From Herminiimonas arsenitoxidans (GTDB taxonomy: Bacteria > Pseudomonadota > Gammaproteobacteria > Burkholderiales > Burkholderiaceae_D): a stretch of DNA of 64,000 nucleotides. Under the pieces are notes generated by a model. It was not told the DNA's origin. It saw only the letters and a program-made list of their open reading frames with translations, and made no database searches. The DNA lies in contig NZ_LT671418.1 of assembly GCF_900130075.1 (NCBI RefSeq), positions 930,001-994,000 on the forward strand, written 5' to 3'. The translations under genes were made by a program, and so were the position numbers. Positions 32,244-47,985 of the stretch are shown here, piece after piece (position 1 is the first letter of the stretch; each line of letters begins with the position of its first letter).

Positions 32244-32468
32244 ACATCAAAGCTTCGGCCTTGGAGCTTCACCTGCAACAATGTCTTATCTAATCAACAA
32301 GATATCAACTCCTCGGCAGCTTCTCTTTTTAGCGCAGGTCTAGATAAAGCGGCAAAGTGACAATCATTTGCCCGCCTAATCCCATCATCAAACTTGTCTG
32401 CATAGTTATATTATTCAGAGATAAGCCGACTTCCGGCCGATCAACGATAAAGAAACGTGCGTGCCTTC

Positions 32469-34052
32469 ATGCAAGACAAGCGAGACAACCCGTCACAAAA
32501 CCCTGCAGAGATCGCACGCGAAGCTTTCCGTCAACTAGCCGTCCGCAGAATTGCCCCAACGCCCGATGCCTACCGTGCGATCTATGATGAGATCGCCGGC
32601 TACGCCATGGAGCCAACCGCAGAAGAAGTTCTCGCCGAGTTTGCCACCACCTTGCTCAATGCACCGGATGGTGTCGCCATCATCGGCAAGACCTTGCAGG
32701 AAGCAGCGACCACACCTTACTGGCCGGATTACAGCAAAGGCCTGACCCAATTGGTCAAGCATTACCAAACCCAGCTATCCGCGCAAAGCAGCACCAATAC
32801 CAGCACAGCACCGACTGTCGTCAACACGACGATGTCATTGATAGACGATCCGCAACCGCTCATGTTGCGCGACTTGCTGACGCGCACACTCTCGCTCGCA
32901 GTTGCCTCCTTGCTACAAGGTGCACCTGCGCTAGCGGAAGAAGCCGAAGCCTTGGGCCGGTCGATCAAGGATGCTCAAACAGAATCCGCACTCAACGAGG
33001 TTTCAGCGCGCCTGAAACAACTGTGCTTCAAGATTGAATTGCAAAGCGGTGACATGGCAGAACAGCAGGAACTGTTGCTCCGTGTATTTAGATTGCTACT
33101 GGAAAATATCAGCAATCTGCTCGAACAAGACTCATGGATGCAAGGACAAATCGAAGCCGTCCGCAATCTGATTTCAGCACCTATTAATGACGTTGCACTC
33201 AACGAAGTCATGCGCAGTCTGAAAGAAGTGATCTACAAACAAGGGACTCTTAAACACAGTCTCGTCGATGCAAAAACTTCCGTCAAAAATATGGTCAATA
33301 CATTTATCGATCGCCTTGCAGACATCGCCAATACCACTGGCAACTACCATCAGCAGATTGACCGTTACTCAAAAGAGATTACGCAGACTGCCGATATCAC
33401 CAAGCTCAACAAGATACTCGACGAAGTGAAGCGCGAGACGCGCATCGCACAAACCGAGGCGCTACGTTCGCGCGACATCATCATCGCCGCACGCAAAGAT
33501 GTCGAAGACGCCGAAGCACGCATCCATAATCTGGAGCTGCAACTGGAACAAATGAGTGAGCTGGTACGCGAAGATCAACTGACCGGCAGCCTCAATCGTC
33601 GTGGTCTGGATGATGTGCTTGAACGCGAAATGGCACGCGCCGATAGACGCGCATCGCCACTTTGCATCGCCATGCTCGATCTGGACGATTTCAAGAAAAT
33701 CAATGACAAGTACGGCCACACTGCTGGCGATGAAGCATTAATCCACTTGGTGCGTGTTATCAAGGAGACACTGCGCTCCATGGATATGATTGCCCGCTTT
33801 GGCGGCGAAGAGTTCTTGATCGTGCTGCCAGATACATCAATGGAAGAAGCCATTCAAACCATCACACGCCTGCAGAGAGAGCTCACCAAGCAGATATTCA
33901 TGCACAACCACACGCGTCTGCTCATGACATTCAGCGCCGGCGTCGCCTTGCGCAACGAAAAAGAAGATCAGCCATCGATGATCAAACGTGCGGATGCCGC
34001 TTTGTATAAAGCGAAAAAAGCTGGGAAAAACCGGGTCATCGCAGCAAATTGA
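32469..34052 (+). CDS. diguanylate cyclase (GGDEF protein)
   Basis: A 527-residue soluble protein that should make the second messenger c-di-GMP. The first ~390 residues are helical, opening with the AREAFRQLAVRRIAPTPDAYRAIYDEI segment common in Burkholderiales GGDEF proteins, and include long coiled-coil stretches (~300-385). The GGDEF domain (~395-527) has an intact GGEEF active site (445-449) and an RSMD inhibitory site five residues before it. ATG 32469 is used; a GTG at 32457 would add four residues. Neither start has a strong ribosome site. The YcgR-like receptor at 52877 could sense its product. Confidence 0.92.
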   Translation: MQDKRDNPSQNPAEIAREAFRQLAVRRIAPTPDAYRAIYDEIAGYAMEPTAEEVLAEFATTLLNAPDGVAIIGKTLQEAATTPYWPDYSKGLTQLVKHYQTQLSAQSSTNTSTAPTVVNTTMSLIDDPQPLMLRDLLTRTLSLAVASLLQGAPALAEEAEALGRSIKDAQTESALNEVSARLKQLCFKIELQSGDMAEQQELLLRVFRLLLENISNLLEQDSWMQGQIEAVRNLISAPINDVALNEVMRSLKEVIYKQGTLKHSLVDAKTSVKNMVNTFIDRLADIANTTGNYHQQIDRYSKEITQTADITKLNKILDEVKRETRIAQTEALRSRDIIIAARKDVEDAEARIHNLELQLEQMSELVREDQLTGSLNRRGLDDVLEREMARADRRASPLCIAMLDLDDFKKINDKYGHTAGDEALIHLVRVIKETLRSMDMIARFGGEEFLIVLPDTSMEEAIQTITRLQRELTKQIFMHNHTRLLMTFSAGVALRNEKEDQPSMIKRADAALYKAKKAGKNRVIAAN

Positions 34053-34128
34053 TGCGACTTTCTTGTTGCACAACGACAGAACTTAATGATATGTACACGT
34101 AATTCATCGTTTTTTGAGATGGAACATT

Positions 34129-35841
34129 ATGCAAGAATCAGAACAATTGAAAGAGCAAGCTTCGGATATCGAGCTTGACTTACAAGCTGCGATCAACTTC
34201 CATCAAAATGGCAATCTTGAAAAGGCTAGCATTCGCTATCGACAAATACTAAAGCAAGAGCCAAACCATGTAACAGCGTCGCATCTCCTCGGCGTTCTTG
34301 CCTATCAAATTGGCAAACACGAACTCGCGATCAATTTGATTAGCAAGGCGATTACACTCAAACCGGACAATCCCGATTTTTACTGCAATCTGGGTACTGC
34401 CTATCAAGGATTGCAGCAGACTGAAGATGCCATAGCCTGCTATCGCAATGCTTTGCTGATTAATCCCGCCTATGCGCTCGCACACAACAATCTTGGTTCT
34501 GCGTTAAAAGAGCAAGGTCGAATTGATGAAGCAATCGTATGCTTTCAACAAGCACTTTCGCTACAACCTGATTTTGTCCTGGCGCAAAACAACTTATCGA
34601 CAGCACAAGGAAACGACAACCAGAATGTACGTCCACCACTATCGGGGCCAGAACAGTTTTATGCAGAAGCCTTGCGATTTGCAGCACAGTTCGAAGTGCC
34701 CCTGAAAGCCTATTGGCCAGCGCACACCAACACACCAGATCCTAAAAAACGGATCAAGCTAGGCTATGTATCCGGCGATTTTCGCAATCATGCGGTAGCC
34801 TATTTCATCCAGCCTATTTTTGTTAACCACGATCACGCCCATTTTGAAGTTTTTTGCTACTCGAATTCTCACATCCACGATGACATCACTGAACAACTCA
34901 AGAAATCGGCCGATCACTGGATAGTCTGCAAAGATCTATCGGAAGATCAACTTGCTGCGCAAATCCTGCAAGACGGGATCGACGTACTAGTCGACCTGTC
35001 TGGCCACACTGCACATAATCGCCTGTTAACATTCGCACGCAAACCTGCGCCGGTACAAGTAACATCCGTCGGCATTCCTGCATCCACCGGCTTACAAGCC
35101 ATCGATTATCGCCTCACCGACATTGACATGGATCCGCCCGGCATGACCGAGGCCTGGCATACCGAAACGCTAGTACGTTTGTCGACCGCAGCAACTTATC
35201 AGCCGCCGACTGACAGTCCAGAAGTATCACCATTACCGGCCTTGAGCTCCCCCGTCTTTACCCTAGCCTGCTTAAATAACCTTGCCAAAATCAGTAAGAG
35301 AACAATTCGGCTCTGGTCTCGTATCCTACATGCGCTCCCCTCTGCACGCCTGATACTTGGCAATGCCCGCAACGAACAAACACGTCAACAATTATTCGAT
35401 CAATTTTCTCAGCAGGGGATTGCCGCCGAACGCATCATACTGAAACCCAACATGCCGCTGCGCGATTATCTGGCACTGCACGGTGAAATCGATCTTGCAC
35501 TCGACCCCTTCCCTTACAATGGTGGCACAACGTCCAACCATTCATTATGGATGGGTGTCCCAGTCATTACACTTGCGGGTAATTCGTCAATTTCGCGCGT
35601 CGGTGTTGCGATCATGTCGCGCATCGGACTCACAGAATGCATCGCTACAGATGAGGAGGATTACCTACGGCTAGTTGTAGAGTACGCCAACGATCTGCCA
35701 CGTCTTTCTGCATTACGCTCAATCTGCCGTACGATGGTTGCAACAGGATCTGGTTCTGGTCCGAAGGAGTTCACATTGGCAGTTGAAAACGCCTATCGAA
35801 CAATGTGGCGTACATGGTGCGCATCTCAAGAATCAGCGTAA
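34129..35841 (+). CDS. TPR / O-GlcNAc-transferase-like (SPINDLY, GT41) protein
   Basis: A 570-residue protein in two parts. About four tetratricopeptide repeats lie at residues ~16-155, followed by a linker and a GT41 catalytic domain (~205-560). The GT41 part shows GYVSGDFRNH (His221 aligns with the conserved N-terminal-lobe His of OGT), VDLSGHTAHNRLLTF, APVQVTSVGIPASTG and the nucleotide-sugar lobe YNGGTTSNHSLWMGVPVITL. Such enzymes transfer a sugar from an NDP donor to Ser/Thr of proteins. ATG 34129 with GGA upstream is preferred over a TTG at 34114. It opens the glycan cluster that ends next to flagellin, so flagellin is the likely acceptor (inference). Confidence 0.9.
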   Translation: MQESEQLKEQASDIELDLQAAINFHQNGNLEKASIRYRQILKQEPNHVTASHLLGVLAYQIGKHELAINLISKAITLKPDNPDFYCNLGTAYQGLQQTEDAIACYRNALLINPAYALAHNNLGSALKEQGRIDEAIVCFQQALSLQPDFVLAQNNLSTAQGNDNQNVRPPLSGPEQFYAEALRFAAQFEVPLKAYWPAHTNTPDPKKRIKLGYVSGDFRNHAVAYFIQPIFVNHDHAHFEVFCYSNSHIHDDITEQLKKSADHWIVCKDLSEDQLAAQILQDGIDVLVDLSGHTAHNRLLTFARKPAPVQVTSVGIPASTGLQAIDYRLTDIDMDPPGMTEAWHTETLVRLSTAATYQPPTDSPEVSPLPALSSPVFTLACLNNLAKISKRTIRLWSRILHALPSARLILGNARNEQTRQQLFDQFSQQGIAAERIILKPNMPLRDYLALHGEIDLALDPFPYNGGTTSNHSLWMGVPVITLAGNSSISRVGVAIMSRIGLTECIATDEEDYLRLVVEYANDLPRLSALRSICRTMVATGSGSGPKEFTLAVENAYRTMWRTWCASQESA

Positions 35842-35854
35842 TGAGCGAAAAGAC

Positions 35855-36529
35855 ATGAAGACCATCATTTATGGAAATGGCGCGATGGCCAAGGTACTGT
35901 ATTCCTACGCGCGCCACAGCATGGATATCTGCGGTTTTACCGTTGACGACATCTGTATTGCCGAAGGAACGAACAATTTCCTCGGATTGCCATTGGTACC
36001 GTTCAGTCTGGTAGAAAAAAAATGGAATACCTCATCGCATAATATGATCCTCGCGATCGGTTACACAGATTTGAATGCACTACGCGAACGAAAATATATC
36101 GAAGCACAACAAAAGGGATACAGTTTTACGCGCTTTATCCATTCATCGGTCATTCAACACGATGGAGTGACAATAGGTGAAAACTGCATTTTGCTGGACC
36201 ACGTCTCTGTGCATCCGGGTTGCCGAATTGATGTCGGCACGTTTATCTCAAGCAACGTCAATATTGGTCACGACTGCATTATCGAAAATAACAACTGGAT
36301 CAATTCCGGTGTAGCCATTGCTGGTGGCTGCACAATCGGTGCCGGCAGTTTTTTCGGCGTCAATGCATCTGTTGGACATAACGTAAAAGTCGGGGCACGC
36401 AACTTCATTGCAGCCAACACCTTAATCAATCGTTCAACCAAAGATGAGCAGGTTTACTTATCTGAGCCAGGCCTGTTGTTCAAACTAAAAAGCAAGGCCT
36501 TTCTTAAGTTCAGTCAGTTGATGAAATAG
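35855..36529 (+). CDS. PglD/NeuD-like sugar N-acyltransferase
   Basis: A 224-residue enzyme with an N-terminal Rossmann-like PglD_N domain (~1-80, starting IIYGNGAMAKVLYSYA) and a left-handed beta-helix of hexapeptide repeats (~90-205, e.g. VTIGENCILLDHVSVHPGC, CTIGAGSFFGVNASVG). Family members transfer acetyl or another acyl group from CoA or ACP to an amino sugar nucleotide. The start at 35855 is 13 bases after the GT41 stop; an ATG overlapping that stop leads only to five codons. The DegT aminotransferase at 43776 would supply the amino group. Confidence 0.88.
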   Translation: MKTIIYGNGAMAKVLYSYARHSMDICGFTVDDICIAEGTNNFLGLPLVPFSLVEKKWNTSSHNMILAIGYTDLNALRERKYIEAQQKGYSFTRFIHSSVIQHDGVTIGENCILLDHVSVHPGCRIDVGTFISSNVNIGHDCIIENNNWINSGVAIAGGCTIGAGSFFGVNASVGHNVKVGARNFIAANTLINRSTKDEQVYLSEPGLLFKLKSKAFLKFSQLMK

Positions 36530-36549
36530 CGAAAGAAATAACAAAAATA

Positions 36550-38178
36550 ATGAAACTCGCAAATCATACTCCGAGCATCCCTCAAGCAAACTATACGCTC
36601 GCCACACTTTTCCTCGCCTGCTCGCAACGCGAGGCAGAAAAAATTGCGGTCATCTGCCAAGATAAAAAAATAACGTACCACGCGCTCGCATCATTGGTCT
36701 GCCGCTGGTCGCAGGCAATGTCTCAAAGAGGCGTCAACCGTGGTGATCATATAGGCGTATTACTGCCGAACAGCATCGAGTTCGTTGCACTGATACTGGT
36801 TGCCGCAGACCTCGGTGCCGTTCTGGTACCACTAAATACATCGCTGACTGCTGCTGCCATACGCAAAGCGTTCAATGCCACGGACGTCAAACATGTCGTC
36901 TCGACTACTACTTTGCTGGAAGAGTTGTCGCGCGACGACTTCCCAGAAGTAAGCGGATTATGGCTGGCGATTGATGAGGCAGTGGACGATATTGCATTAC
37001 CCAACATTGAATATCTCTCAACGTTACTGAGCACAGCCCATCATGAGGCGGCATTGCTTAACTGGGGACAAACCGATGATGCCCTCATCTTGACGATGAC
37101 ATCTGGCTCTACCGGCGACCCAAAACCCATCATCCTCACACAACGTACCAAGTTGAATCGCGTAGCTGCGGCAATAGCGCTGTACAACATCCACGCGACC
37201 GATATCACTCTTGCAGCCACCCCCCTCTACCATTCGTTAGCAGAAAGACTTGTGCTTATTCCACTACTGACCGGCGGCACGTCAGTATTAATGGACAAAT
37301 TCTCTGCAACAGAATGGATAAAACACATCGAGGCACAAACCGTTACTTTCACAATCGCTGTTTCATCTCAACTCAAACAAATCGTTGATTACCTGCCAAA
37401 CGTTGCGCCGACTGCCATGCGCAGCCTGCGTTGCGTCGTTTCGTCTTCTGCGCTATTGGAGTCAGAATTAAAAGAAAAGCTGCTTGCCAAATTAGATTGC
37501 GATTTTCACGAATGCTACGGCACGTCCGAAATCGCCATCGCATCTAATCTGGACGGCAGCGCTGCACGAACCAAATTAAATTCCGTAGGCATCAGCGCAC
37601 CTGGCGTGGACATTATGATCATCGATGCCCATGACCATGTCGTAGCAGCCGGCCAGCCAGGTGAAATTGTATGTAAAACGACGATGCTGTTCGGCGGTTA
37701 TTACAAGCGGCAGGAACTAACTCAGGCAGCAATGTGGGGGGAGTATTTTCGCACCGGCGACATCGGCACACTGGATGCAGACGGTTTTCTGCATTTTCTC
37801 GGCCGAAAAAAAGACATCATCGTGACTGGTGGTATCAACGTCTATCCTGCCGATATCGAGGCGGCACTTACCGAGCATCCTGCGGTACTGGAAGCGGCTG
37901 CATTCGCCTATCCAGATGCCAATCTTGGAGAAGTTGTTGCCGTTGCCATTGTTCCGAAAGATGCCATCCGCTTCGATACCGATGGCGAATTGCGAAAACT
38001 CCGATTTCATTGCGCCGCACAGTTGGCAGATTTCCAGCAACCTCGAAAATTTTTCATTATCGAGACATTACCGCGCAACAGTATGGGGAAACTGATGAAG
38101 TTTCAGTTGACAAACAGATTTAGCAACACAGCAAGCGATGTCGCAATTCACATCGAAACAAAGGCAACAACCTCCTGA
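36550..38178 (+). CDS. AMP-forming acyl-activating enzyme (acyl-CoA/acyl-ACP ligase type)
   Basis: A 542-residue ANL-superfamily ligase that adenylates a carboxylic acid and passes it to CoA or a carrier protein. The phosphate-binding motif MTSGSTGDPK is at 183-192, ECYGTSE follows near 320, the RTGDIG and GRKKDIIVTGGINVYP hinge is at ~400-433, and the catalytic Lys is Lys514 in NSMGKLMK. With a stand-alone ACP gene two genes downstream, loading of that ACP is a plausible role. The acyl substrate cannot be deduced. It starts 20 bases after the acyltransferase gene. Confidence 0.92.
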   Translation: MKLANHTPSIPQANYTLATLFLACSQREAEKIAVICQDKKITYHALASLVCRWSQAMSQRGVNRGDHIGVLLPNSIEFVALILVAADLGAVLVPLNTSLTAAAIRKAFNATDVKHVVSTTTLLEELSRDDFPEVSGLWLAIDEAVDDIALPNIEYLSTLLSTAHHEAALLNWGQTDDALILTMTSGSTGDPKPIILTQRTKLNRVAAAIALYNIHATDITLAATPLYHSLAERLVLIPLLTGGTSVLMDKFSATEWIKHIEAQTVTFTIAVSSQLKQIVDYLPNVAPTAMRSLRCVVSSSALLESELKEKLLAKLDCDFHECYGTSEIAIASNLDGSAARTKLNSVGISAPGVDIMIIDAHDHVVAAGQPGEIVCKTTMLFGGYYKRQELTQAAMWGEYFRTGDIGTLDADGFLHFLGRKKDIIVTGGINVYPADIEAALTEHPAVLEAAAFAYPDANLGEVVAVAIVPKDAIRFDTDGELRKLRFHCAAQLADFQQPRKFFIIETLPRNSMGKLMKFQLTNRFSNTASDVAIHIETKATTS

Positions 38179-38193
38179 TCGACCTGAACAACT

Positions 38194-39390
38194 ATGCAGA
38201 CTCAAATACAAACCAAGCTACCACTACAACTCGGTTTCATAGGCGGATCACTCAATGCAGCGGTCGGCTATTCGCATTTTATCTCCAGCACGATGGATGG
38301 CAAATGGCAACTTGTCGCAGGCTGCTTCAGCAAGAGTCCAGAATCAAACACGAAGACGGCGGAAGTCTACGGCGTAAGTACTGACCGTGTTTATAGTAGT
38401 CTGGCCGATATGCTACTGCATGAAAAAGACCGTCTGGATGCTATCGTTGTCTTGACCCCTACACCAGACCATTTTGACAACGTCAGCGCCTGTCTAACCG
38501 CTGGTATTCCCGTGATCTGCGAAAAATCGCTATCCGTCTGCAGCGATGATGCACAAAAGCTGATTGCGCTACGAGACAAGGTCAAAGGCTTTCTTGCCGT
38601 CACCTACAACTACTCCGGCTATCCAATGCTGCGCGAACTGGCACTACGGATTCGCAAGGGGAAGCTTGGCAAGATCCTACACTTCCAAGCCGAAATGCCG
38701 CAGGAAGGTTTCATCCGACTGGACGCACACGGCAACAGGCCTCAGCCTCAACCGTGGCGATTGTCCGACGGTGACATCCCAACGCTTTATCTTGACCTCG
38801 CAGTCCATCTCCACCAAATCATGCATTACCTCACCGACGAAAAACCGATCGAATTGGTAGCTGACCAGAATAGCTACGGCTGGTTTTTCGGCGTAATTGA
38901 TAACGCCAATTGTCTTGTACGCTATAGCAACGAGATACAGGGCCAACTCTGGTTCAGCAAATCTGCGTTAGGCCACCGCAACGGCTTGCGTATCCGTATC
39001 TATGGTGATCGCGGTTCAGCCGAGTGGTATCAGGCCAATCCCGAAGAACTAGTGCTATCGCATATCGATGGCCGTCGGGAAATTCTGGATCGCTCTGGCC
39101 AGGTCGAAATAAGTAACCAGTCACGCTACAACCGTTTCAAGGCTGGTCATCCGGCCGGCTTCATCGAGGCATTCGCTAATTTATACAGTGATATCGCGGT
39201 GAGCTTACGGCATTTCCAACAGAACGGTGAATGGAAGTCGGACGAAGTATTTAGTGCGGAACTAGCACTGGAAGGCATGTTCTTTTTAGAAGCCATGGTG
39301 ACGTCGTCGCACAGCCGGAGTTGGCAGACCGTCCAGTCTGCCAAGCTGCAGAATGACGACACAGAACATACATTTTTGAGGGCGATTTGA
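38194..39390 (+). CDS. Gfo/Idh/MocA-family NAD(P)-dependent oxidoreductase
   Basis: A 398-residue sugar-type oxidoreductase. The N-terminal Rossmann domain starts LGFIGGSLNAAVGYSHF, and the family EKP motif appears as CEKS in GIPVICEKSLSV. The C-terminal alpha/beta domain has the expected YLDLAVHLHQIMHYLT segment with the catalytic-type His. Members oxidise or reduce sugar nucleotides, so a step in making the cluster's modified sugar is likely. It starts 15 bases after the ligase and its stop overlaps the next start by one base (TGATG). Confidence 0.9.
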   Translation: MQTQIQTKLPLQLGFIGGSLNAAVGYSHFISSTMDGKWQLVAGCFSKSPESNTKTAEVYGVSTDRVYSSLADMLLHEKDRLDAIVVLTPTPDHFDNVSACLTAGIPVICEKSLSVCSDDAQKLIALRDKVKGFLAVTYNYSGYPMLRELALRIRKGKLGKILHFQAEMPQEGFIRLDAHGNRPQPQPWRLSDGDIPTLYLDLAVHLHQIMHYLTDEKPIELVADQNSYGWFFGVIDNANCLVRYSNEIQGQLWFSKSALGHRNGLRIRIYGDRGSAEWYQANPEELVLSHIDGRREILDRSGQVEISNQSRYNRFKAGHPAGFIEAFANLYSDIAVSLRHFQQNGEWKSDEVFSAELALEGMFFLEAMVTSSHSRSWQTVQSAKLQNDDTEHTFLRAI

Positions 39391-39644
39391 TGCAAAACGA
39401 CATACAGCTCTATGTTCTGGCACTACTGCAAAAGAAATCCCGGCTACCGAAGGATTTTGACGATGCCAGCGATTTCATCTCAACTGGGATCATCGATTCA
39501 ATCGCTATCATCAAATTCATATTGGCACTGGAAGAAAAGTTCGATATAGAGATTACCGACAGCGATCTTGAGTCCGAACAATTTCGTTCAGTACAAGGAT
39601 TAGCCATGATGATCAGCAAAAAAACCGGAACTACTCACTCATGA
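39390..39644 (+). CDS. stand-alone acyl carrier protein
   Basis: An 84-residue acidic, helical protein with the ACP fold. Ser37 in GIIDSIAI is the expected 4'-phosphopantetheine attachment site (the usual DSL is DSI here), and helix III has FDIEITDSDLESEQF. It differs from the housekeeping ACP of fatty acid synthesis and is embedded in the glycan cluster, overlapping both neighbours (1 base upstream, 4 bases ATGA downstream). It probably carries the acyl group used to decorate the sugar. Confidence 0.9.
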   Translation: MQNDIQLYVLALLQKKSRLPKDFDDASDFISTGIIDSIAIIKFILALEEKFDIEITDSDLESEQFRSVQGLAMMISKKTGTTHS

Positions 39645-40783
39645 TTACTCATTCAATAAGCATGATCGAGAGCACTGCATTCGGCCCCCTTCTCGGCAAC
39701 CTTGCGTCCGCAAGCGACATGCTCAACGAAGCCGAACTCTTCCTGTCACCAGCCTATCGTGGCCCACGTTTTCTGCTTGGTCGAAATGAACATAGCGCTG
39801 CATTGCTTCACACCGCCGGCATCGACTCCCTGATTGATGGCATCGTCGACGATCATGCCGACGGCACCACTTGGCAAGGAAAACCTGTGCTTGCCGGTGA
39901 AAACGTCCCAACCGATGCGATGATCGTTAATTGTTCAATGTCGATCGCGCCGGTATCGGCTTCACGCCGATTGCGCGCATTGCGCTTCAAGAGCAGTCTT
40001 AATTATGCGGATCTGATGGCGGCCCGGCCAGACCTGATACCGGCCCCTGCATTCGTCACGGAAATGCGGGCAAATCTAGTCGAGCATACATCTCGCTGGA
40101 ACGCTCTATATGCTCAATTGAAAGACGAAGAGTCTAAAACCATCTTCACCGATGTGCTACGCTTTCGCTTGACCGCCGATCCGCTATATATGGCGTCATA
40201 TTCCATACGTTTTTCCGATCAATACTTTGAAGATTTTCTGCCTCTACAGAATGCTATATTCGTCGATGCTGGCGGCTTCAATGGTGATACAACAGAGGAA
40301 TTCTGCAAACGATATCCAGATTATCGCGAAGTCATCTTGTTTGAGCCATCCGCCACCAACATGGCAGATGCCAAACTCAGATTGGCCGAACACCGCGATA
40401 TACGATTCATCGAACAAGGTATTTCCGATGCCCCCGGCACACTATGGTTCAACTCGGATGCCGGCTCCGCGAGCGCGGTGAGTACCGAGGGTGCATGTCG
40501 TATCGACGTCACCACACTCGACATCGCACTCAGTGATGCCGTCACGTTCATCAAAATGGATCTCGAAGGTTGGGAAATGAAAGCACTGGCTGGTGCAGAA
40601 CAACATATTCGCAACGATTATCCGACGCTGGCGATTTCGGTTTACCACAGCACCTCTGACTTCTGGCGTATCCCTGAATATATCGCCAGCATTCGGCAAG
40701 ACTATGACATTTACCTGCGTCATTACACGGAAGGCTGGTCAGAAACCGTGATGTTCTTTATCCCCAAAACCACAGCCGATTGA
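39641..40783 (+). CDS. FkbM-family methyltransferase with extra N-terminal domain
   Basis: A 380-residue protein. The C-terminal half (~200-380) is an FkbM-type SAM methyltransferase: FVDAGGFNGDTTEEF binds SAM, VILFEPSATNM follows, and FIKMDLEGWEMKALAGAEQHI is the family signature. The N-terminal ~190 residues have an alpha/beta look (LGRNEHSAALLHTAGIDSLIDG, PTDAMIVNCSMSIAP) and are not recognised; they may bind a sugar nucleotide. FkbM enzymes O-methylate sugars and other small molecules. The start overlaps the ACP stop by four bases. Confidence 0.87.
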   Translation: MITHSISMIESTAFGPLLGNLASASDMLNEAELFLSPAYRGPRFLLGRNEHSAALLHTAGIDSLIDGIVDDHADGTTWQGKPVLAGENVPTDAMIVNCSMSIAPVSASRRLRALRFKSSLNYADLMAARPDLIPAPAFVTEMRANLVEHTSRWNALYAQLKDEESKTIFTDVLRFRLTADPLYMASYSIRFSDQYFEDFLPLQNAIFVDAGGFNGDTTEEFCKRYPDYREVILFEPSATNMADAKLRLAEHRDIRFIEQGISDAPGTLWFNSDAGSASAVSTEGACRIDVTTLDIALSDAVTFIKMDLEGWEMKALAGAEQHIRNDYPTLAISVYHSTSDFWRIPEYIASIRQDYDIYLRHYTEGWSETVMFFIPKTTAD

Positions 40784-40796
40784 CTCGAAAGTTCCC

Positions 40797-41537
40797 ATGA
40801 CCGAATTCACACAACAACACGGCGTACGCGAAATTCGCCCCAAGATATTGTTTCAACAGATCGAAGAACGAAATCCAGATCGCAATGTAATGTTCAACGT
40901 CAGCATTCCGAGTAGCGCCATCGGCGGCATGACCTTGCTGGAGAGTTCGATTCTGGTTAGCTTGGCATCACTGACATCCGCCAGTATTTTTTTTGAATTC
41001 GGCACTTACATGGGGGCAACTAGCGTCCTGCTGGCAGCCAATTCGGCACCACACGCCAGGATCACGACGGTCGATCTCCCCCCGGCCAGTATCGACACTG
41101 CCAAACCAGACAGCGACGAAGTTACATTAATTCTGCAAAATGATATCGAAAACGATAACTACCTGCGTCGCACATTTGCTGAAAAGGGCGCGTTTTACAT
41201 CGACCGCGCCGACGCAGAAACGCAGAACAAGATTAAGCGTATTTACCACGACAGTCGCAGCCTCGATCCACAGGCACAAGACTTGGCAGGTCGCTTCGAT
41301 TTCATTTTTATCGATGGTGGCCACGACTACGACACGGTCGCCATCGATACCACGAATGCGCTAAAAATGGCAAAACCGGATGCAGTCATCATCTGGCACG
41401 ATTACCGCTCAAAAATCCATGGAGACGTGACCCGTTTTGTCGATCACTTCAGTCAGGAAATCCCACTGATTCATGTGCAAAACACCATGCTGGCTTTCAT
41501 GCTCAAAGGAAAATTCCGCAACCTGCTGCCGAATTGA
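40797..41537 (+). CDS. class I SAM-dependent methyltransferase
   Basis: A 246-residue Rossmann-fold methyltransferase of the Methyltransf_24 type. Motif I is FEFGTYMG (66-73) and the later IDGGHDYD (172-179) is the metal/SAM-linked acidic loop typical of sugar O-methyltransferases. It ends in a basic KGKFRNLLPN. It is 13 bases after the FkbM gene in the same transcription unit. The likely target is a hydroxyl of the glycan being built, by position only. Confidence 0.87.
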   Translation: MTEFTQQHGVREIRPKILFQQIEERNPDRNVMFNVSIPSSAIGGMTLLESSILVSLASLTSASIFFEFGTYMGATSVLLAANSAPHARITTVDLPPASIDTAKPDSDEVTLILQNDIENDNYLRRTFAEKGAFYIDRADAETQNKIKRIYHDSRSLDPQAQDLAGRFDFIFIDGGHDYDTVAIDTTNALKMAKPDAVIIWHDYRSKIHGDVTRFVDHFSQEIPLIHVQNTMLAFMLKGKFRNLLPN

Positions 41538-41565
41538 ACAACAGGCCACAAGAACGACCACGCAT

Positions 41566-42606
41566 ATGGAAATTTCCACAGAAAATCTGGAACCACAACG
41601 CATCGACTGGTATCGCACGCCAATCGACGCACAAGCACTCGGCCTCCTGACCAAGCGCAGCGACCGACAAGGCTGGCTGCATATAGGCGGCCATCTCCTG
41701 CTGCTCACCTGCACGGGCACCATAGCCTACCTTACCTATCTGCATCAGCTTTACTTGACTGCATTGGTAATGCTACTGATCCATGGCACCTGCTATTCAT
41801 TCTTGGGATGGGCCGGTGCCGGTCATGAACTGGTGCACCGTACTGTATTCAAGAACAAGGCATGCAATGAATTTTTTCTATTTCTGTTTGCCTTTTTGAG
41901 CTGGAATAATCCGATCTATTTTCGTGCCAGTCACATTCGCCACCATCAAAAAACTGTATTCACTGCTCACGATAGCGAAGTAAGATTGCCGCAGACACTC
42001 CGTTATACAGACTGGATCTGGTCACTAACCTTTGATGTGCCAGCAGCGTACCGTGCGTTGCGCATCGTCATCGAAAACAGTATGGGAATCATCAAGGGGC
42101 AATGGAGCTCGCGCCTGTTTACGGAAACTATGGGTGCAGAACGACGTCAGATCGCCATCTGGGCGCGTGCCGTGCTGCTCGGACATATAGCTTTAGCCGC
42201 AGCTTTTGTTCTGAGCGGACATTGGCCACTTCTGCTAATCATCACATTTGCCCCCTTCATCGCCGATTGGTTAAACAAGGTGCTAGCCTTGGCTCAGCAT
42301 TTCGGCATGCAACCGAACGTTTGCGATTACCGCGACAACAGTCGTACTGTGCTGCTGCACCCTGCACTGGCATTTTTATACTGGCAAATGAACTATCACA
42401 TAGAACATCACATGTATCCGGGCGTGCCGTTCTTTCAACTGAAAAATTTACGGCGCCAGTTGGAGTACGATCTGCCGATTGCCTCTAACGGGATTCTGCC
42501 ATTGCTAGTGGAAATGGCATTGATCAAAAAGCGGCAAGCGCAGTCAGATGCTCTTACCCAGTCTACTGCCCAAACCGATAACCTTATCCAAAAAGGAAGG
42601 CCATGA
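41566..42606 (+). CDS. membrane fatty acid desaturase family protein
   Basis: A 346-residue di-iron membrane enzyme. The three histidine boxes are HELVH (87-91), HIRHH (123-127) and HIEHH (278-282), with two membrane hairpins between them (~45-85, ~103-120, ~200-235). The spacing fits acyl-lipid or acyl-CoA desaturases and related hydroxylases. The start at 41566 is internal to a longer frame, chosen because it clears the preceding gene. It overlaps the next gene by four bases, so it belongs to the cluster. Desaturation or hydroxylation of the acyl group carried by the nearby ACP is an inference. Confidence 0.9.
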   Translation: MEISTENLEPQRIDWYRTPIDAQALGLLTKRSDRQGWLHIGGHLLLLTCTGTIAYLTYLHQLYLTALVMLLIHGTCYSFLGWAGAGHELVHRTVFKNKACNEFFLFLFAFLSWNNPIYFRASHIRHHQKTVFTAHDSEVRLPQTLRYTDWIWSLTFDVPAAYRALRIVIENSMGIIKGQWSSRLFTETMGAERRQIAIWARAVLLGHIALAAAFVLSGHWPLLLIITFAPFIADWLNKVLALAQHFGMQPNVCDYRDNSRTVLLHPALAFLYWQMNYHIEHHMYPGVPFFQLKNLRRQLEYDLPIASNGILPLLVEMALIKKRQAQSDALTQSTAQTDNLIQKGRP

Positions 42607-43727
42607 ATCAGCTACAAACCGGCCCTACAGGTAAACCAATCCTGATCTTCCCCGCCAGCATGCCGCGCTCGCTCGACTATCTCGAAAAATGTAAACGTGA
42701 TGGCCAAGCAGTAATCGGCTCATCATCGCTAGCCTACGATGTCTCAAAAGAAAAGTATCCGGCATGGGCTTACCTACCATACGTCAATGACCCGACCTTT
42801 AACGACGCGCTGCAAACCTTGATTGCAGAACGCAACATCGGTGGAATCTATACCCCAAATCCAGTAGTCTGGAATTATTTGAACAAGGTATTGAAAAAAA
42901 TTAGTCTCGATATCCGACTGGTCAACACATGGCCAATGAATGACGAGTTGAGCGGCTATCGCACCGCAATTTCCCGTGCTGCTTATGTGCTCGATAACCC
43001 GCTGTCATTAGCGTCCATGCATACGCCCAAACCTGCGCTGAGCAAGCTGCAAATTGCCTCTCTGTTCCGTCACGGCAATGTCATTCCAGGGATGTGCGAC
43101 GATGCAAAAATCAATGCCTTGTACGAGATCGCCCGCAATAGTTGCAGCGGCGACGTTGTCGAAATCGGCAGCGCCTTCGGCAAATCCGCATTCATACTAG
43201 CGCGCCTGTCACAATGTTACGGTATCGGCAAGGTCTTATGTATCGATCCCTGGAAAAGTGATTTCGTGATACAGAACGACAATGGAGGCTTAGTCGATAA
43301 TTGCATCGACCAATATGATTATGATGAAGCGCTGCGAGTGTTCGAAATGAATCTGTTGCCATACAGTGTCAACGACATCAATTATTTGCGCATGCCATCA
43401 AGCGAAGCGGCGCAGTATTACAAGTCGCAACGCAACGTGCAAAGCGAGTCGTTCGGCAACACCGAATATACGGGCCGGATCGCACTGCTACACATCGACG
43501 GCAACCACAGTTATGAAGCTGCCCAAGCCGACGTGGAAGCTTGGTGCACGCACGTATTACGCGGCGGCTGGATCATCATTGACGATTACATCTGGCCGTA
43601 CGGCGATGGACCACAACGCGTAGGCGATGAATTTCTCCGGCAGCATCAAGCAAAAATTGTCGTATCCTTCGTAATGGGCAGTGCGCTATTCATTCAGCTG
43701 TCGGCACCACTACAGATAACAGAGTAA
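42603..43727 (+). CDS. two-domain SAM-dependent methyltransferase
   Basis: A 374-residue protein. The N-terminal ~130 residues (KPILIFPASMPRSLDYLEKCKRDG) resemble a Rossmann-like pre-ATP-grasp or sugar-binding domain that I cannot name. Residues ~175-370 are a Methyltransf_24 domain with VVEIGSAFGKSAFILARL (from residue 185), LCIDPWKSDF, and LLHIDGNHSYE with a later IIIDDYIWPYGDGP. It is the third methyltransferase of the cluster and overlaps the desaturase gene by four bases (ATGA). Confidence 0.85.
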   Translation: MNQLQTGPTGKPILIFPASMPRSLDYLEKCKRDGQAVIGSSSLAYDVSKEKYPAWAYLPYVNDPTFNDALQTLIAERNIGGIYTPNPVVWNYLNKVLKKISLDIRLVNTWPMNDELSGYRTAISRAAYVLDNPLSLASMHTPKPALSKLQIASLFRHGNVIPGMCDDAKINALYEIARNSCSGDVVEIGSAFGKSAFILARLSQCYGIGKVLCIDPWKSDFVIQNDNGGLVDNCIDQYDYDEALRVFEMNLLPYSVNDINYLRMPSSEAAQYYKSQRNVQSESFGNTEYTGRIALLHIDGNHSYEAAQADVEAWCTHVLRGGWIIIDDYIWPYGDGPQRVGDEFLRQHQAKIVVSFVMGSALFIQLSAPLQITE

Positions 43728-43775
43728 TAGATCGCCAAAAAACATTTCAATCGTAGTCCTTTCCAAGTGCGCCCG

Positions 43776-44885
43776 ATGAACAAAAAAAAATTACATGTCA
43801 CCGAACCTTATCTGCCGCCACTGGAAGAATTTATTCCCTATCTGGAACAAATCTGGGAGAGCAAATGGTTGACCAATAATGGTCAATTTCATCAGGAGCT
43901 GGAACAGGCCTTATGCGATTACCTCGGCGTCAAACATCTCGCCCTTTTTTCCAACGGCACGCTGGCCTTGGTTACGGCACTACAGGCATTGCGCATAGGC
44001 GGCGAAGTCATCACAACGCCTTACAGTTTTGTGGCTACCACACACGCACTAAATTGGAACGGCATTAAACCGGTATTCGTCGATATTGATCCACTCACTT
44101 TCAACATAGATCCCAGTAAAATTGAAGCAGCCATAACACCTCAGACCACCGCGATCCTACCGGTACACGTCTATGGCAACCCATGTGCAACCGACGAAAT
44201 TCAGGTAATCGCCGACAAATATGGATTGAAAGTCATCTATGACGCTGCGCATGCGTTTGGCACCCGCCATGAAGGCCAGTCGATACTTGGTGCTGGTGAT
44301 CTATCCGTATTGAGTTTTCACGCGACAAAAGTTTTTAACACGTTTGAAGGTGGCGCCATCATTTGTCCAGATGCCAAAACCAAGCAACGCATCGATCACT
44401 TGAAAAATTTCGGCTTTGCCGATGAAGTCACGGTAGTTGCACCCGGCATTAATGCGAAGATGAATGAAATGCAAGCTGCGTTCGGATTGCTACAGCTAAA
44501 GCATATGGATAAAGTCTTTACCGAACGCCGGCGCATCGACCAAACATACCGCAGCACACTGCAAGGAATAAAGGGCTTGCATCTGCCACAAATTCCACCG
44601 CAAGTTGATCGTAACTATGCATACTTCCCCGTGCTAATCGACAACGATTTCCCGTTCGGACGTGATGCGCTGTACGACAAACTGCGTGCCCAAAATATCT
44701 TTGCGCGACGTTATTTTTATCCACTAATCAGCGAATTTCAGCCTTATCGCAACCTACCGTCAGCCTGCAAAGACAATCTGCCGGTTGCAACGCAACTGGC
44801 GCAACAAGTCCTGTGCCTGCCAATTTACCCAAATTTAAGCCACGCTGAGCAGATGTCTATCATTAACGCGCTTAAATCAGCCTGA
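43776..44885 (+). CDS. DegT/DnrJ/EryC1/StrS sugar aminotransferase
   Basis: A 369-residue PLP enzyme that converts a keto sugar nucleotide to an amino sugar using glutamate. Lys185 in SFHATKVFNTFEGG binds PLP, Asp156 in YDAAHAFG pairs with the cofactor nitrogen, and FSNGTLALVTAL binds phosphate. The family includes VioA, PglE and similar enzymes. ATG 43776 is preferred over a GTG at 43767. Nine consecutive A residues follow at 43782-43790, directly after the second codon. No dehydratase or nucleotidyltransferase gene is in the cluster, so the keto sugar must come from elsewhere. Confidence 0.93.
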   Translation: MNKKKLHVTEPYLPPLEEFIPYLEQIWESKWLTNNGQFHQELEQALCDYLGVKHLALFSNGTLALVTALQALRIGGEVITTPYSFVATTHALNWNGIKPVFVDIDPLTFNIDPSKIEAAITPQTTAILPVHVYGNPCATDEIQVIADKYGLKVIYDAAHAFGTRHEGQSILGAGDLSVLSFHATKVFNTFEGGAIICPDAKTKQRIDHLKNFGFADEVTVVAPGINAKMNEMQAAFGLLQLKHMDKVFTERRRIDQTYRSTLQGIKGLHLPQIPPQVDRNYAYFPVLIDNDFPFGRDALYDKLRAQNIFARRYFYPLISEFQPYRNLPSACKDNLPVATQLAQQVLCLPIYPNLSHAEQMSIINALKSA

Positions 44886-44924
44886 GACTGGCTCCCGAAG
44901 AAATAACGTCTTTATACCCTCCTC

Positions 44925-44948
44925 CTCGCTCTACCGGACGAGAGCGAG
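44925..44948 (+). terminator. putative terminator at the end of the glycan cluster
   Basis: CTCGCTCT / AGAGCGAG stem of eight base pairs with an eight-base loop, followed by a T-rich but not uniform ATTCCTTATTCT. It lies 40 bases after the aminotransferase stop and may separate that operon from the TPR gene. Confidence 0.55.
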
Positions 44949-45006
44949 ATTCCTTATTCTGTGAAATCAATAAGCATCTCCGTGCTCACTTGCACCAGAA
45001 ACGGCA

Positions 45007-46125
45007 ATGAAAAAACATAGATCAAAAGACTTATCGTCTTCCACCACGCACAACACCATCAGCGATTTGATGAAATTAGCGCTCAAGCAACAGCAATCCA
45101 CTCGCCTCGCTGATTCGGAAAAAAATTATAGGAAAATACTGGCATTGTCGCCGACCCATGCAGGCGCACTACGTCAACTCGGAATCCTCTTGCGCGCATC
45201 CGGTAGATCGCTGGAAGCATTGGAACCACTAAGCACTGCACAGGCAATACAACCCGACGACTCGCAGACTCATCTAGCATTGGGCAATGCCTTCCACGAT
45301 CTGGGGCGCTTGCAAGAAGCCGCCGCCTGCTACACCAAGGCTATTGAGATCAATCCGCAGTTCGCAGAAGCACATCACAATCTCGGCCACACCCTCAACC
45401 TGCAAGGATTGCAGCAAGATGCGGCAATTTGTTATCGCCAAGCGCTGGCACTCAATGTCGATTACGTCGATGCTTATCTCAATCTAGGCGGCATCTACAA
45501 AGAGCTAGAACAATTTACTGAAGCAGAAGACTGTTATCGCCAAATATTAAAACGTCAACCAAAGTCGGCCGAAGCGCATTACAACTTGGGCTGTACGTTT
45601 CAAGCACAAAATCATTTCGACCCGGCCATTACAGAATATCGACAAGCGATTAATCTGAAAAACGACCATCTCGATGCGCGCCTCAATCTCGGCACGACGC
45701 TATTTGCGCAGGGACACTACGATAATGCGATTGATTGTTATCGTGCATTATTGGCAATTGCCCCATCACATGCATCGGCATATTCCAATATGGGCTTGGC
45801 TCTCCAGGCACAAACCAAGCTCGGCGAAGCAGAATCCTGTTATCGCACAGCACTCAAGCTGGATCCGGCACGGGCAGATGTTTTTTGCAACCTTGGAGTG
45901 GTGCTAAATCTGATGGATCGTACAGCGGATGCATTACTCTGCTACCAAGAAGCAATTCAGCTACGAGATGATTACGCGCTGGCTTACAACAACATGGGGC
46001 TTACACTGATCAACCAAGGGCAACCAGAAGCGGCAATTGCCAGTTATCGGCGCGCGCTCGAGATCACCCCTGACTACGCCGAAGCGCACAGCAACCTGCT
46101 AATGACTTTGTTATATATGGAGTAA
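45007..46125 (+). CDS. tetratricopeptide repeat protein, ending where a GT41 domain would begin
   Basis: A 372-residue protein made almost entirely of about nine TPR units (from ~12 to ~360), each 34 residues with the W/L-G-Y-A-F-A-P pattern (for example LGNAFHDLGRLQEAAACYTKAIEINPQ). The last residues AHSNLLMTLLYME match the junction that in bacterial TPR-OGT proteins leads into the SPINDLY catalytic domain, but the frame stops there and no catalytic remnant follows. It could be a scaffold for the GT41 enzyme at 34129 or a truncated gene. It lies directly before the flagellin promoter region. Confidence 0.85.
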   Translation: MKKHRSKDLSSSTTHNTISDLMKLALKQQQSTRLADSEKNYRKILALSPTHAGALRQLGILLRASGRSLEALEPLSTAQAIQPDDSQTHLALGNAFHDLGRLQEAAACYTKAIEINPQFAEAHHNLGHTLNLQGLQQDAAICYRQALALNVDYVDAYLNLGGIYKELEQFTEAEDCYRQILKRQPKSAEAHYNLGCTFQAQNHFDPAITEYRQAINLKNDHLDARLNLGTTLFAQGHYDNAIDCYRALLAIAPSHASAYSNMGLALQAQTKLGEAESCYRTALKLDPARADVFCNLGVVLNLMDRTADALLCYQEAIQLRDDYALAYNNMGLTLINQGQPEAAIASYRRALEITPDYAEAHSNLLMTLLYME

Positions 46126-46441
46126 AGCTACGCCTAGCATAGTTGAGCGTTTATTTTTAGATAACAATCTATTCCACCGCAGTTGCACCTCCTCTGGATG
46201 CCACTTGTTTACTTATCGCATGTGGCTTAAGACATTTATTTATATCGCTCTCGAACATTTATTTAAAAAAATCTTCCATCAAAATTCGTAAAATTGCATG
46301 CATAACTGAGGAGCACATACACTTTCAAAAAACTTGAGGGTTAATTAAAAAAATATTTCCTTAAAGAATTTTCTAGTTAAGTCGAAGAACAAGTTGTCTG
46401 GCGCATGTTGAGACGGGACCGGAAAAAATTAAGTTATTTAT
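46126..46441. other. AT-rich spacer upstream of the flagellin promoter
   Basis: About 316 bases without a convincing frame, notably richer in A and T than the neighbours. The 11-base sequence ACATTTATTTA occurs twice (46232-46242 and 46255-46265), 23 bases apart. It may bind nucleoid proteins or regulators of fliC; I see no gene. Confidence 0.5.
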
Positions 46442-46468
46442 TAAACTTTTTCCAGTAGCGTCCGATAA
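46442..46468 (+). promoter_or_regulatory. sigma-28 (FliA) promoter of fliC
   Basis: TAAACTTT (46442-46449), an 11-base spacer and TCCGATAA (46461-46468) differ from the FliA consensus TAAAGTTT-N11-GCCGATAA by only two bases. It is 99 bases before the fliC start and gives an mRNA leader of about 90 bases that contains several GGA motifs. Confidence 0.88.
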
Positions 46469-46566: not shown

Positions 46567-47985
46567 ATGGCAGCAGTAATCAACACCAATGTCTCGTCGC
46601 TGAATGCGCAACGCAATCTGACGACATCCCAATCCTCCCTGGCAACTTCGCTGCAACGTTTGTCGTCTGGTCTGCGTATCAATAGCGCAAAAGACGATGC
46701 TGCAGGCTTGGCAATTTCCGATCGTATGACCAGCCAGATCAATGGTTTGAACCAGGCTGCACGTAACGCCAACGACGGCATTTCGCTGGCACAAACGGCT
46801 GAAGGTGCACTCGGTCAGGCAACGGATTTGCTGCAACGTATCCGCACATTGGCAGTACAGTCTGCAAATGCTTCCAACAGCGCAAGTGATCGCGGCGCAT
46901 TGCAAAATGAAGTAACACAATTGGTTGGCGAATATGACCGTCTTGCTACACAAACCCAGTTCAATGGCCAAAACGTGCTGGATGGCTCGTTTGCTAATGC
47001 AAATTTCCAAATCGGCGCCAATGCCAACCAAACCATCGGCGTACAAATCGGTGACTCGCGCTCCAGCGCAGTCGGCAACAAAACAGCTGCTGCAAGTATA
47101 TTTGCCCCTACCACCGTGGCTAGTACGGGCCTGACAATCAATGGTCAAAGTGTCGCCACTACTGGCACAACATCTAAAGCAAAAGTTGATGCAATCAATG
47201 CACAATCAGGAATAACTGGCGTCACCGCATCGCAATCTGGCAACTTTAGCATCGGCGCGGCCATCACTGGCACCACAGCAATTGCAGCTGGCGACATCAC
47301 CATCAATGGTGTCCAGCTTGGTGCGGTTAGTGGCGGAGCAAATGCATCAGCACAAGCGACTAATGTTGCAGCTGCCATCAATGCAAAAACTGGCTCGACC
47401 GGCGTCACTGCTACTATTGGCGATGGCTCAAACGGCGGCGCGGCTAACGCTATCATCCTCAGCAATACTACGGGTGCGGCAATTTCGGTCGGTCTTGGTA
47501 GCACAGCAACTGCCGCTGCCGCTGGCCTGACTGCTGGCACCACTGCTGCAGGCGAGAACGGCAAAATCACTCTGTCGACTGACTTGAACGGTAGTATCGC
47601 TATCGGTGGGACCGCTGCGGCAGCTGGAAGTATAGGTTTCGCGACGGGCACGATCACCACCGACACAAATCTGTTGAGCTCGATCTCGATCTCCACTGAT
47701 ACTGGTGCACAAAATGCATTGCTGGTAGTCGATGCAGCCCTGTCGGCCGTCAGCAGCACTCGTGCGCAACTTGGTGCAGTACAAAATCGCTTTACCTCAG
47801 TAGTAGCATCGCTAGGCACCACCAGCGAAAATTTGAACGCAGCTCGCAGCCGTATTCTGGATGCTGACTTCGCTTCGGAAACAGCTAACCTGACACGCGG
47901 TCAGATCTTGCAACAAGCTGGTACAGCCATGCTGGCACAAGCGAACTCACTGCCTAACGGTGTGCTCGCCCTGCTCCGCGGCTAA
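46567..47985 (+). CDS. fliC: flagellin
   Basis: A 472-residue filament protein exported by the flagellar type III system. The conserved N terminus ([40 protein letters not shown]) and C terminus ([33 protein letters not shown], ending LLRG) form the D0/D1 core. The middle (~175-385) is rich in Ala, Gly, Thr and Ser and contains flagellin-hook-IN-like segments ([23 protein letters not shown]). GGAG seven bases upstream fixes the ATG at 46567. It is driven by the sigma-28 promoter. The Ser/Thr-rich middle is a candidate target of the adjacent glycosylation cluster. Confidence 0.97.

What the first reader, a model, noticed from the sequence alone, without database searches (positions are those of the whole stretch)
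34129..46125. Accessory glycan cluster with GT41 transferase, ACP, acyl ligase, desaturase and three methyltransferases next to flagellin
Eleven plus-strand genes, many overlapping by 1-4 bases, sit between a diguanylate cyclase and fliC. The set fits synthesis of an N-acylated, O-methylated amino sugar: DegT aminotransferase, PglD-like acyltransferase, acyl ligase plus ACP, methyltransferases and a Gfo/Idh oxidoreductase. The GT41/SPINDLY enzyme could attach it to Ser/Thr. Flagellin of some Pseudomonas strains carries an acylated, methylated viosamine made with a comparable aminotransferase/ACP/methyltransferase set. The GT41 enzyme, the TPR partner and the desaturase give this cluster an unusual composition. 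No dehydratase or nucleotidyltransferase is present, so precursor supply must come from elsewhere.
Basis: partly seen in the sequence, partly recalled or inferred. Interest (0 to 1): 0.78.

Follow-up and report, generated by a model that had tools for sequence, protein, structure and literature searches.

The report
Acyl-sugar decoration island beside flagellin
A 12-kb block of eleven genes, inserted in front of this bacterium's flagellin gene and missing there in its closest relatives, very likely builds an unusual acylated, methylated sugar and attaches it to the flagellum; the kind of system is known, but the way it supplies the acyl group appears to be a new variant.

Summary
Eleven open plus-strand genes fill 34129-46125 and form an insertion (about 34053-46353): in all 12 congeners examined the diguanylate cyclase gene is followed by fliC, about 456-655 bp apart.

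Relatives of the block occur in other Proteobacteria. NeuD-ligase-Gfo-ACP keep one order in 7 of 7 loci that have all four, and in 8 of 8 testable ligase-bearing loci (window included) flagellin lies on the same contig within 45 kb (7 of 8 within 20 kb). This supports a flagellin glycosylation island with a TPR-GT41 (SPINDLY/FlmG-like) transferase.

It differs from the known viosamine islands in acyl supply: ketoacyl synthase and reductase are replaced by an AMP-ligase, ACP and Gfo/Idh enzyme, here with a desaturase-like protein. Among 20 Gfo loci examined, 9 have the ligase, 7 an ATP-grasp protein, none both; two ligase loci are pseudaminic acid clusters. This suggests an exchangeable acid-donor cassette. 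ATP-grasp versions are near flagellin in only 2 of 7. RmlA and RmlB, for the precursor, lie elsewhere in the genome.

No glycan, site or activity is shown. Verdict: new variant of a known kind.

The parts
34053..46353 (.). Inserted block (12.3 kb) between the diguanylate cyclase gene and the fliC promoter; ends approximate
   Evidence: similarity to congeners does not pass the cyclase stop (left flank matched in 10 of 12) and resumes near 46350 (right flank matched in 12 of 12)
34129..35841 (+). TPR + GT41 (SPINDLY-like) glycosyltransferase, 570 aa; proposed flagellin O-glycosyltransferase
   Evidence: PF13844 159.9 bits (cut-off 25); best PDB match SPINDLY 403.9 bits; K387 aligns with SPY K665 (that K665 is catalytic is recalled)
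35855..36529 (+). NeuD/PglD/PerB-like left-handed beta-helix N-acyltransferase
   Evidence: Hexapep; TIGR03570 135.6 bits (cut-off 160.8, below); best PDB perosamine N-acetyltransferase; G138-H139 invariant in 7 of 7 aligned
36550..38178 (+). AMP-forming acyl/acid ligase (ACL)
   Evidence: PF00501 220.8 bits; TSGSTG-PK motif and K514 invariant in 7 of 7 aligned, window included
38194..39390 (+). Gfo/Idh/MocA oxidoreductase
   Evidence: PF22725, PF01408; 68-73% identity to orthologues in L021-L024
39387..39644 (+). Acyl carrier protein (TTG at 39387; ATG at 39390 is the likelier start)
   Evidence: PF00550 35.2 bits (cut-off 20.8); D37-S38 invariant in 7 of 7 aligned
39641..40783 (+). Two-domain FkbM-family methyltransferase
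40797..41537 (+). Class I methyltransferase (Methyltransf_24)
   Evidence: PF13578 59.8 bits; no NCBIfam or PDB sequence match at E 0.001; 69-72% identity in L022 and L024
41566..42606 (+). Membrane di-iron FA_desaturase-family protein (desaturase or hydroxylase)
   Evidence: PF00487 91.1 bits; His boxes H87/H91, H123/H126/H127, H278/H281/H282 invariant in the 20 aligned (of 120 listed)
42603..43727 (+). Methyltransferase whose C-terminal half best matches MeT1, SpnH, NovP and MycF
43767..44885 (+). DegT/DnrJ/EryC1 aminotransferase, closest to DesI
   Evidence: PF01041 360.4 bits; TIGR04427 DesI 317.3 bits (cut-off 650, below); best PDB 2po3
45007..46125 (+). TPR-only protein next to fliC; possibly a GT41 paralogue without its transferase domain, or a flagellin-binding partner
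   Evidence: TPR families, no GT; related by its TPRs to full TPR-GT41 proteins, no clear GT remnant downstream; in L024 the gene at this place is a full TPR-GT41
46442..46468 (+). sigma-28-like site upstream of fliC, kept outside the insert
   Evidence: 2 mismatches to a recalled consensus; same site in 12 of 12 congeners, 11 with 2 mismatches and 1 with 3. One such match in the window alone is not significant (33 of 100 shuffles have one)
46567..47985 (+). fliC flagellin, the proposed acceptor

Best explanation
The block is a horizontally acquired flagellin glycosylation island. Proposed order of events. (1) RmlA and RmlB, encoded elsewhere, make dTDP-4-keto-6-deoxyglucose. (2) The DegT enzyme aminates it at C-4 to a dTDP-4-amino-4,6-dideoxyhexose of the viosamine type. 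(3) The AMP-ligase loads a carboxylic acid onto the dedicated ACP; the Gfo/Idh enzyme, and in this sub-lineage the di-iron desaturase-like enzyme, help make or alter that acid. (4) The NeuD-like enzyme moves the acyl group from ACP to the C-4 amine. (5) The methyltransferases O-methylate sugar and perhaps acyl hydroxyls. (6) The TPR domain of the GT41 protein binds flagellin in the cytoplasm and its GT domain puts the sugar on Ser/Thr before export. Shown here: gene content, insertion, synteny with flagellin genes, precursor genes, predicted folds and conserved motifs. Inferred: every reaction, the sugar, the acid and the acceptor.
For: Insertion directly upstream of the fliC promoter region, absent from that site in 12 of 12 congeners. 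Flagellin on the same contig within 45 kb in 8 of 8 testable ACL-bearing loci, within 20 kb in 7 of 8. One GT41 gene in the genome and no PF01973 match (that Maf transferases fall in PF01973 is recalled, and the control set rang only in archaea). DegT closest to DesI; NeuD closest to PerB and PglD, with LpxA and LpxD acyl-ACP acyltransferases among its further matches. ACP attachment serine and ligase motifs invariant in those aligned. Best fold matches of one methyltransferase are sugar O-methyltransferases. rmlA-rmlB present. Precedents, passages read: FlmG, Enterobacteriaceae islands with GT41, DegT, NeuD, FkbM, Acp and CaiC ligase, viosamine island.
Against: No mass or activity data. DegT and NeuD stay below the NCBIfam cut-offs of their best-matching models. 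The Gfo sub-module occurs away from flagellin in 5 of 7 ATP-grasp loci, two of them in genomes without a PF00669 match (L073, L054). If only flagellin-bearing, two-sidedly testable genomes are compared, the ligase/ATP-grasp contrast is 8 of 8 against 2 of 4, p = 0.09. In L052 flagellin is 42.7 kb from the cluster. S+T content of the flagellin centre, 28%, is within the congener range of 20-30%, so the acceptor shows no adaptation. Characterised GT41 enzymes use UDP or GDP donors (recalled), not dTDP.
Confidence: 0.75

Rival explanations
1. The block makes an acylated amino sugar for another surface polysaccharide (LPS or exopolysaccharide); its place beside fliC is incidental.
For: Gfo with an ATP-grasp protein, mostly with DegT and FkbM, lies far from flagellin or in flagellin-free genomes in 5 of 7 loci.
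Against: All 8 testable ligase-bearing loci have flagellin on the same contig within 45 kb; no polymerase, flippase or second glycosyltransferase among the eleven genes; the rml operon lies about 830 kb away.
Confidence: 0.1
2. The GT41 enzyme puts GlcNAc or fucose on flagellin or other proteins in the SPINDLY/OGT manner, and the other genes make an unrelated acylated metabolite.
For: Closest solved relatives are SPINDLY and OGT.
Against: A GT41 lies with DegT and the acyl genes in L023, L024 and L052 (there on the other strand), and with DegT in L016 and L077; genes in the window are tightly spaced.
Confidence: 0.08
3. A decaying island: the flagellin-proximal TPR gene has lost its GT domain and the system is no longer active.
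For: TPR-only gene where L024 has a full TPR-GT41; insert found in 1 of the 13 held species of the genus at this site.
Against: All eleven frames are open and the motifs checked are intact; a complete GT41 remains at the other end.
Confidence: 0.07

Closest known systems
Enterobacteriaceae flagellin glycosylation islands (De Maayer and Cowan 2016, PMC4875605; section 9 and passages read)
   Same: Patchy insert at the flagellin locus; GT41 with a SPINDLY domain; DegT, NeuD, FkbM and other methyltransferases; Acp and a CaiC-type ligase.
   Different: The words Gfo and desaturase do not occur in the main text; the site there is between fliC and fliA; the authors infer GlcNAc derivatives and a possible liposugar; most of their GT41s carry a methyltransferase domain.
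Pseudomonas syringae viosamine island and P. aeruginosa PAK island (PMC3927599, passages read)
   Same: DegT aminotransferase, VioB-type acyltransferase, ACP, methyltransferase; predicted dTDP-N-acyl-O-methyl-4-amino-4,6-dideoxyglucose.
   Different: There the acyl chain is built with ketoacyl-ACP synthase III (VioS) and reductase (VioR) and VioT caps rhamnose; here ligase plus Gfo plus desaturase-like protein, and a TPR-GT41. No sequence of those islands was compared here.
Caulobacter FlmG (PMC7591256, passages read)
   Same: Cytoplasmic TPR N-terminal domain plus C-terminal glycosyltransferase acting on flagellin.
   Different: FlmG uses pseudaminic acid; no FlmG sequence was compared here.
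Shewanella sfmABCDE and Aeromonas islands (PMC3765264, PMC7874193, passages read)
   Same: SfmE is an ATP-grasp-domain protein in flagellin modification; Aeromonas group II has ACP, ketoacyl reductase and AMP-dependent synthetase, group III a Gfo/Idh enzyme.
   Different: Nonulosonic acid systems with Maf proteins named as likely transferases.

Membership tests
Flagellin glycosylation island | Insert at the flagellin locus with glycosyltransferase and sugar-biosynthesis genes, patchy among relatives | tested here: met
Flagellin glycosylation island | Flagellin carries the glycan | not testable with these tools
   needs mass spectrometry
GT41 glycosyltransferase | PF13844 above cut-off and conserved active-site lysine | tested here: met
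   (159.9 bits, cut-off 25); K387 aligned with SPY K665 (role recalled)
FlmG-class flagellin O-glycosyltransferase | N-terminal TPR plus C-terminal GT in one protein | tested here: met
   architecture from PMC7591256
FlmG-class flagellin O-glycosyltransferase | TPR domain binds flagellin; enzyme sufficient for modification | not testable with these tools
   interaction and reconstitution assays needed
FlmG-class flagellin O-glycosyltransferase | Sequence orthology to FlmG | not tested
   no FlmG sequence was fetched; the GT41 model rings in Caulobacter vibrioides
Viosamine island | VioA-type C-4 aminotransferase | tested here: inconclusive
   closest to DesI but 317.3 bits against a cut-off of 650; 2po3 best PDB
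Viosamine island | Ketoacyl-ACP synthase III and reductase (VioS, VioR) | tested here: not met
   no such family among the eleven genes
Viosamine island | ACP and VioB-type acyltransferase | tested here: met
   ACP; NeuD-like fold, though below the TIGR03570 cut-off
NeuD/PglB/VioB acetyltransferase subfamily TIGR03570 | Score above curated cut-off | tested here: not met
   135.6 bits against 160.8
TylF/MycF-type sugar O-methyltransferase (gene 42603-43727) | Fold and metal-ligand aspartates | tested here: met
Membrane di-iron fatty acid desaturase superfamily | Three histidine boxes | tested here: met
   invariant in 20 of 20 aligned

The most novel reading that the evidence does not exclude
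Acid-ligase, ACP and Gfo/Idh enzyme form an exchangeable acyl-donor cassette for protein glycosylation: it is plugged into viosamine-type sugars in betaproteobacteria and pseudaminic acid in gammaproteobacteria, and is replaced by an ATP-grasp amide ligase in other loci. In the window's sub-lineage a membrane di-iron enzyme desaturates or hydroxylates the carrier-bound acid, so that the filament bears a lipid-like, O-methylated acyl sugar.
Probability: 0.3. Interest if true: 0.7.

Novelty: new variant of a known kind. Interest (0 to 1): 0.52.

Why it matters
Flagellin glycans affect motility and recognition by hosts and phages (general knowledge), yet the rules for their variable acyl parts are poorly known. 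The swap between ligase/ACP/NeuD and ATP-grasp with Gfo retained gives a testable rule: the Gfo enzyme belongs to the acid, not the sugar. The block also offers a TPR-GT41 that may transfer a rare acylated dideoxy-sugar, of use for protein engineering, and a natural plus/minus comparison within one genus.

Tried and rejected
The idea that the N-terminal domain of the FkbM protein is a PglD-like nucleotide-sugar domain: profile comparison gave probability below 1%; not supported. The fold lists are filled by the catalytic domains, so the N-terminal halves were barely tested on their own; the FkbM protein as a whole matches 2py6, whose function I do not know.

Search for GT-domain remnants downstream of the TPR gene: short-peptide matches only, none at E below 0.008, the best ones being TPR sequence. 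Ser/Thr enrichment of flagellin: none against congeners (20-30%); the cluster-bearing relatives L021, L080 and L082 show 33-39% but in much shorter centres, L081 27%. Foreign base composition: no. sigma-70 promoter scan: 10 found, 17.6 expected. Exact sigma-28 pattern: 0; sigma-28 site before the GT41 gene: best has 9 mismatches. Desaturase as a marker in the order: 10 of 399 genomes matched, own genome included; of the 9 others only 4 neighbourhoods were fetched (L017-L020), and L017 alone has related neighbours. Of the 11 Gfo matches outside the own genome, 7 were fetched; the 4 at 32-33% identity were not. Paper searches with 0 hits: flagellin + glycosylation + desaturase + Gfo Idh MocA; flagellin glycosylation + acyl carrier protein + viosamine, although PMC3927599 exists in other wording, so such zeros are weak. 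A distance of 37 kb for L052 in my notes was wrong; it is 42.7 kb. The 45-kb limit was set after seeing the distances.
Full report
What is there. The window lies in a 3.78 Mb single-contig genome. Between a diguanylate cyclase gene (32457-34052) and fliC (46567-47985) stand eleven open plus-strand genes: TPR-GT41, NeuD-like acyltransferase, AMP-ligase (ACL), Gfo/Idh, ACP, FkbM methyltransferase, Methyltransf_24 methyltransferase, FA_desaturase-family protein, a second Methyltransf_24 methyltransferase, DegT aminotransferase and a TPR-only protein. Internal spacing: six gaps of 13-39 bp, three 4-bp overlaps and one 121-bp gap.

It is an insertion. In 12 of 12 congeners the same cyclase gene is followed by fliC, flaG and fliD, with about 456-655 bp between cyclase and fliC. 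Similarity to the window does not pass the cyclase stop codon (left flank matched in 10 of 12) and resumes near 46350 (right flank matched in 12 of 12). The kept right flank carries a sigma-28-like site at 46442-46468, present in all 12 congeners (11 with 2 mismatches, 1 with 3); a single such match in the window alone would not be significant. None of the 12 congeners has a match to the 42603-43727 methyltransferase at E 0.001 or a close GT41; two have a distant GT41 at 30-31% identity. Insert GC is 48.9% against 50.7% for the rest of the window.

The gene order is conserved elsewhere and tied to flagellin. A scan with the ligase gave seven loci, one of them (L027) with no other cluster gene. 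Whole-genome searches with the Gfo protein matched 12 of 399 genomes (order, E 1e-50), 4 of 369 (class, E 1e-85) and 5 of 398 (phylum, E 1e-85), own genome included each time; four matches at 32-33% identity were not fetched. NeuD-ACL-Gfo-ACP is in the same order in the window, L021 (Gallionellaceae), L022, L023, L024 (Janthinobacterium lividum), L025 (Rhodocyclales) and L052: 7 of 7 loci that have all four; in L021 an extra open frame lies between ACL and Gfo. FkbM-MT-desaturase-MT follows in the same order in the window, L022 and L024. DegT stands upstream of NeuD in the six others (in L022 only a piece at the contig edge), but at the fliC end in the window; in L024 a DegT fragment also lies beside fliC (L024:20564-20815). 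Flagellin genes were located with PF00669 and tblastn. For ligase-bearing loci with a testable contig (window, L021, L023, L024, L025, L052, L026, L076) flagellin is on the same contig within 45 kb in 8 of 8 and within 20 kb in 7 of 8; distances from cluster edge: 0.4, 2.2, 7.8, 0.6, 13.9, 42.7, 1.3 and 18.8 kb. The 45-kb limit was set afterwards. L022 is an 8.6-kb contig and was dropped as untestable.

Two exchangeable versions. Of the 20 loci with a Gfo match examined (window, L017, L021-L026, L052-L057, L073-L078), 9 have the ligase, 7 have an ATP-grasp protein beside Gfo (L017, L053, L054, L073, L074, L077, L078; Pfam-confirmed in 7 of 7), 4 have neither (L055-L057 are distant at 31-35%; L075), and 0 have both (window). 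The ATP-grasp loci show no NeuD or ACP by tblastn at E 1e-6, a test that also missed the divergent ACP of L026. They are near flagellin in 2 of 7 (L077, L053); two genomes have no PF00669 match (L073, L054), and L074 lies near a contig end, so only one side could be tested. Fisher exact for 8 of 8 against 2 of 7 gives p = 0.007; 0.021 without the window; 0.015 without L074; 0.041 at 20 kb; 0.09 if only flagellin-bearing genomes are kept and L074 is dropped. The loci come from two different queries, so this is descriptive. L026 and L076 are pseudaminic acid clusters (PseB, PseC and PseI above cut-offs in both; PseG above it in L076 and below it in L026) that also hold the ligase and Gfo, and in L026 a weak ACP match. 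Because Gfo goes with either amide-forming module and with two different sugars, the most economical reading is that it acts on the acid that is attached. This is inference.

Precursor. RmlA, RmlB, RmlC and RmlD all pass their TIGRFAM cut-offs in one gene run at about 134-137.5 kb, so dTDP-4-keto-6-deoxyglucose should be available.

Comparison with what is known. Enterobacterial islands with GT41, DegT, NeuD, FkbM, ACP and ligase are described (PMC4875605), as are FlmG (PMC7591256), the viosamine island (PMC3927599), Aeromonas islands with ACP and AMP-dependent synthetase or Gfo/Idh (PMC7874193) and an ATP-grasp protein in Shewanella flagellin modification (PMC3765264); passages of each were read, and section 9 of the first. 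The kind is therefore known. I met no description of the ligase-Gfo-ACP core beside flagellin with the ATP-grasp alternative, nor of the desaturase-like member, in searches, which cover open-licence papers only and whose hits were mostly seen as listings.

Limits. Exclusivity was tested inside stretches of about 20 kb (L021 13.6 kb, L057 12 kb, L022 8.6 kb). The product, the acid and the acceptor sites are predictions.

Noticed in passing
L017, L053, L054, L073, L074, L077, L078: An ATP-grasp protein of about 380-390 aa sits beside the Gfo homologue where no ligase or NeuD was found; never together with the ligase (0 of 20 Gfo loci examined).
   Followed up: partly
L026:7106-14844 and L076:4912-12922: Pseudaminic acid clusters beside or near flagellin genes that hold the same ligase and Gfo enzymes.
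   Followed up: partly
window 45007-46125: TPR-only gene next to fliC; in L024 (17252-20500) the gene at this place is a 1083-residue open frame with TPRs and a full GT41 domain.
   Followed up: partly
L024:20564-20815: DegT fragment (59.5% identity to residues 19-102) between the second TPR-GT41 and fliC, a sign of past duplication or recombination; in the window the intact DegT lies at this end.
   Followed up: no
L021:8357-10183 and L025:12584-14920: Radical-SAM proteins (with B12-binding in L021, fused to a GT2 domain in L025) take part of the variable section in relatives.
   Followed up: no
L021:3646-4464, L052:5452-6810, L052:7884-9161, L017:9821-12070: Open frames in or beside related clusters with no Pfam match at E 1e-5; not shown to be genes.
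   Followed up: no
window 32457-34052: The diguanylate cyclase is a constant upstream neighbour of fliC in the genus (12 of 12 congeners) and a relative also precedes fliC in L016 and L084.
   Followed up: no
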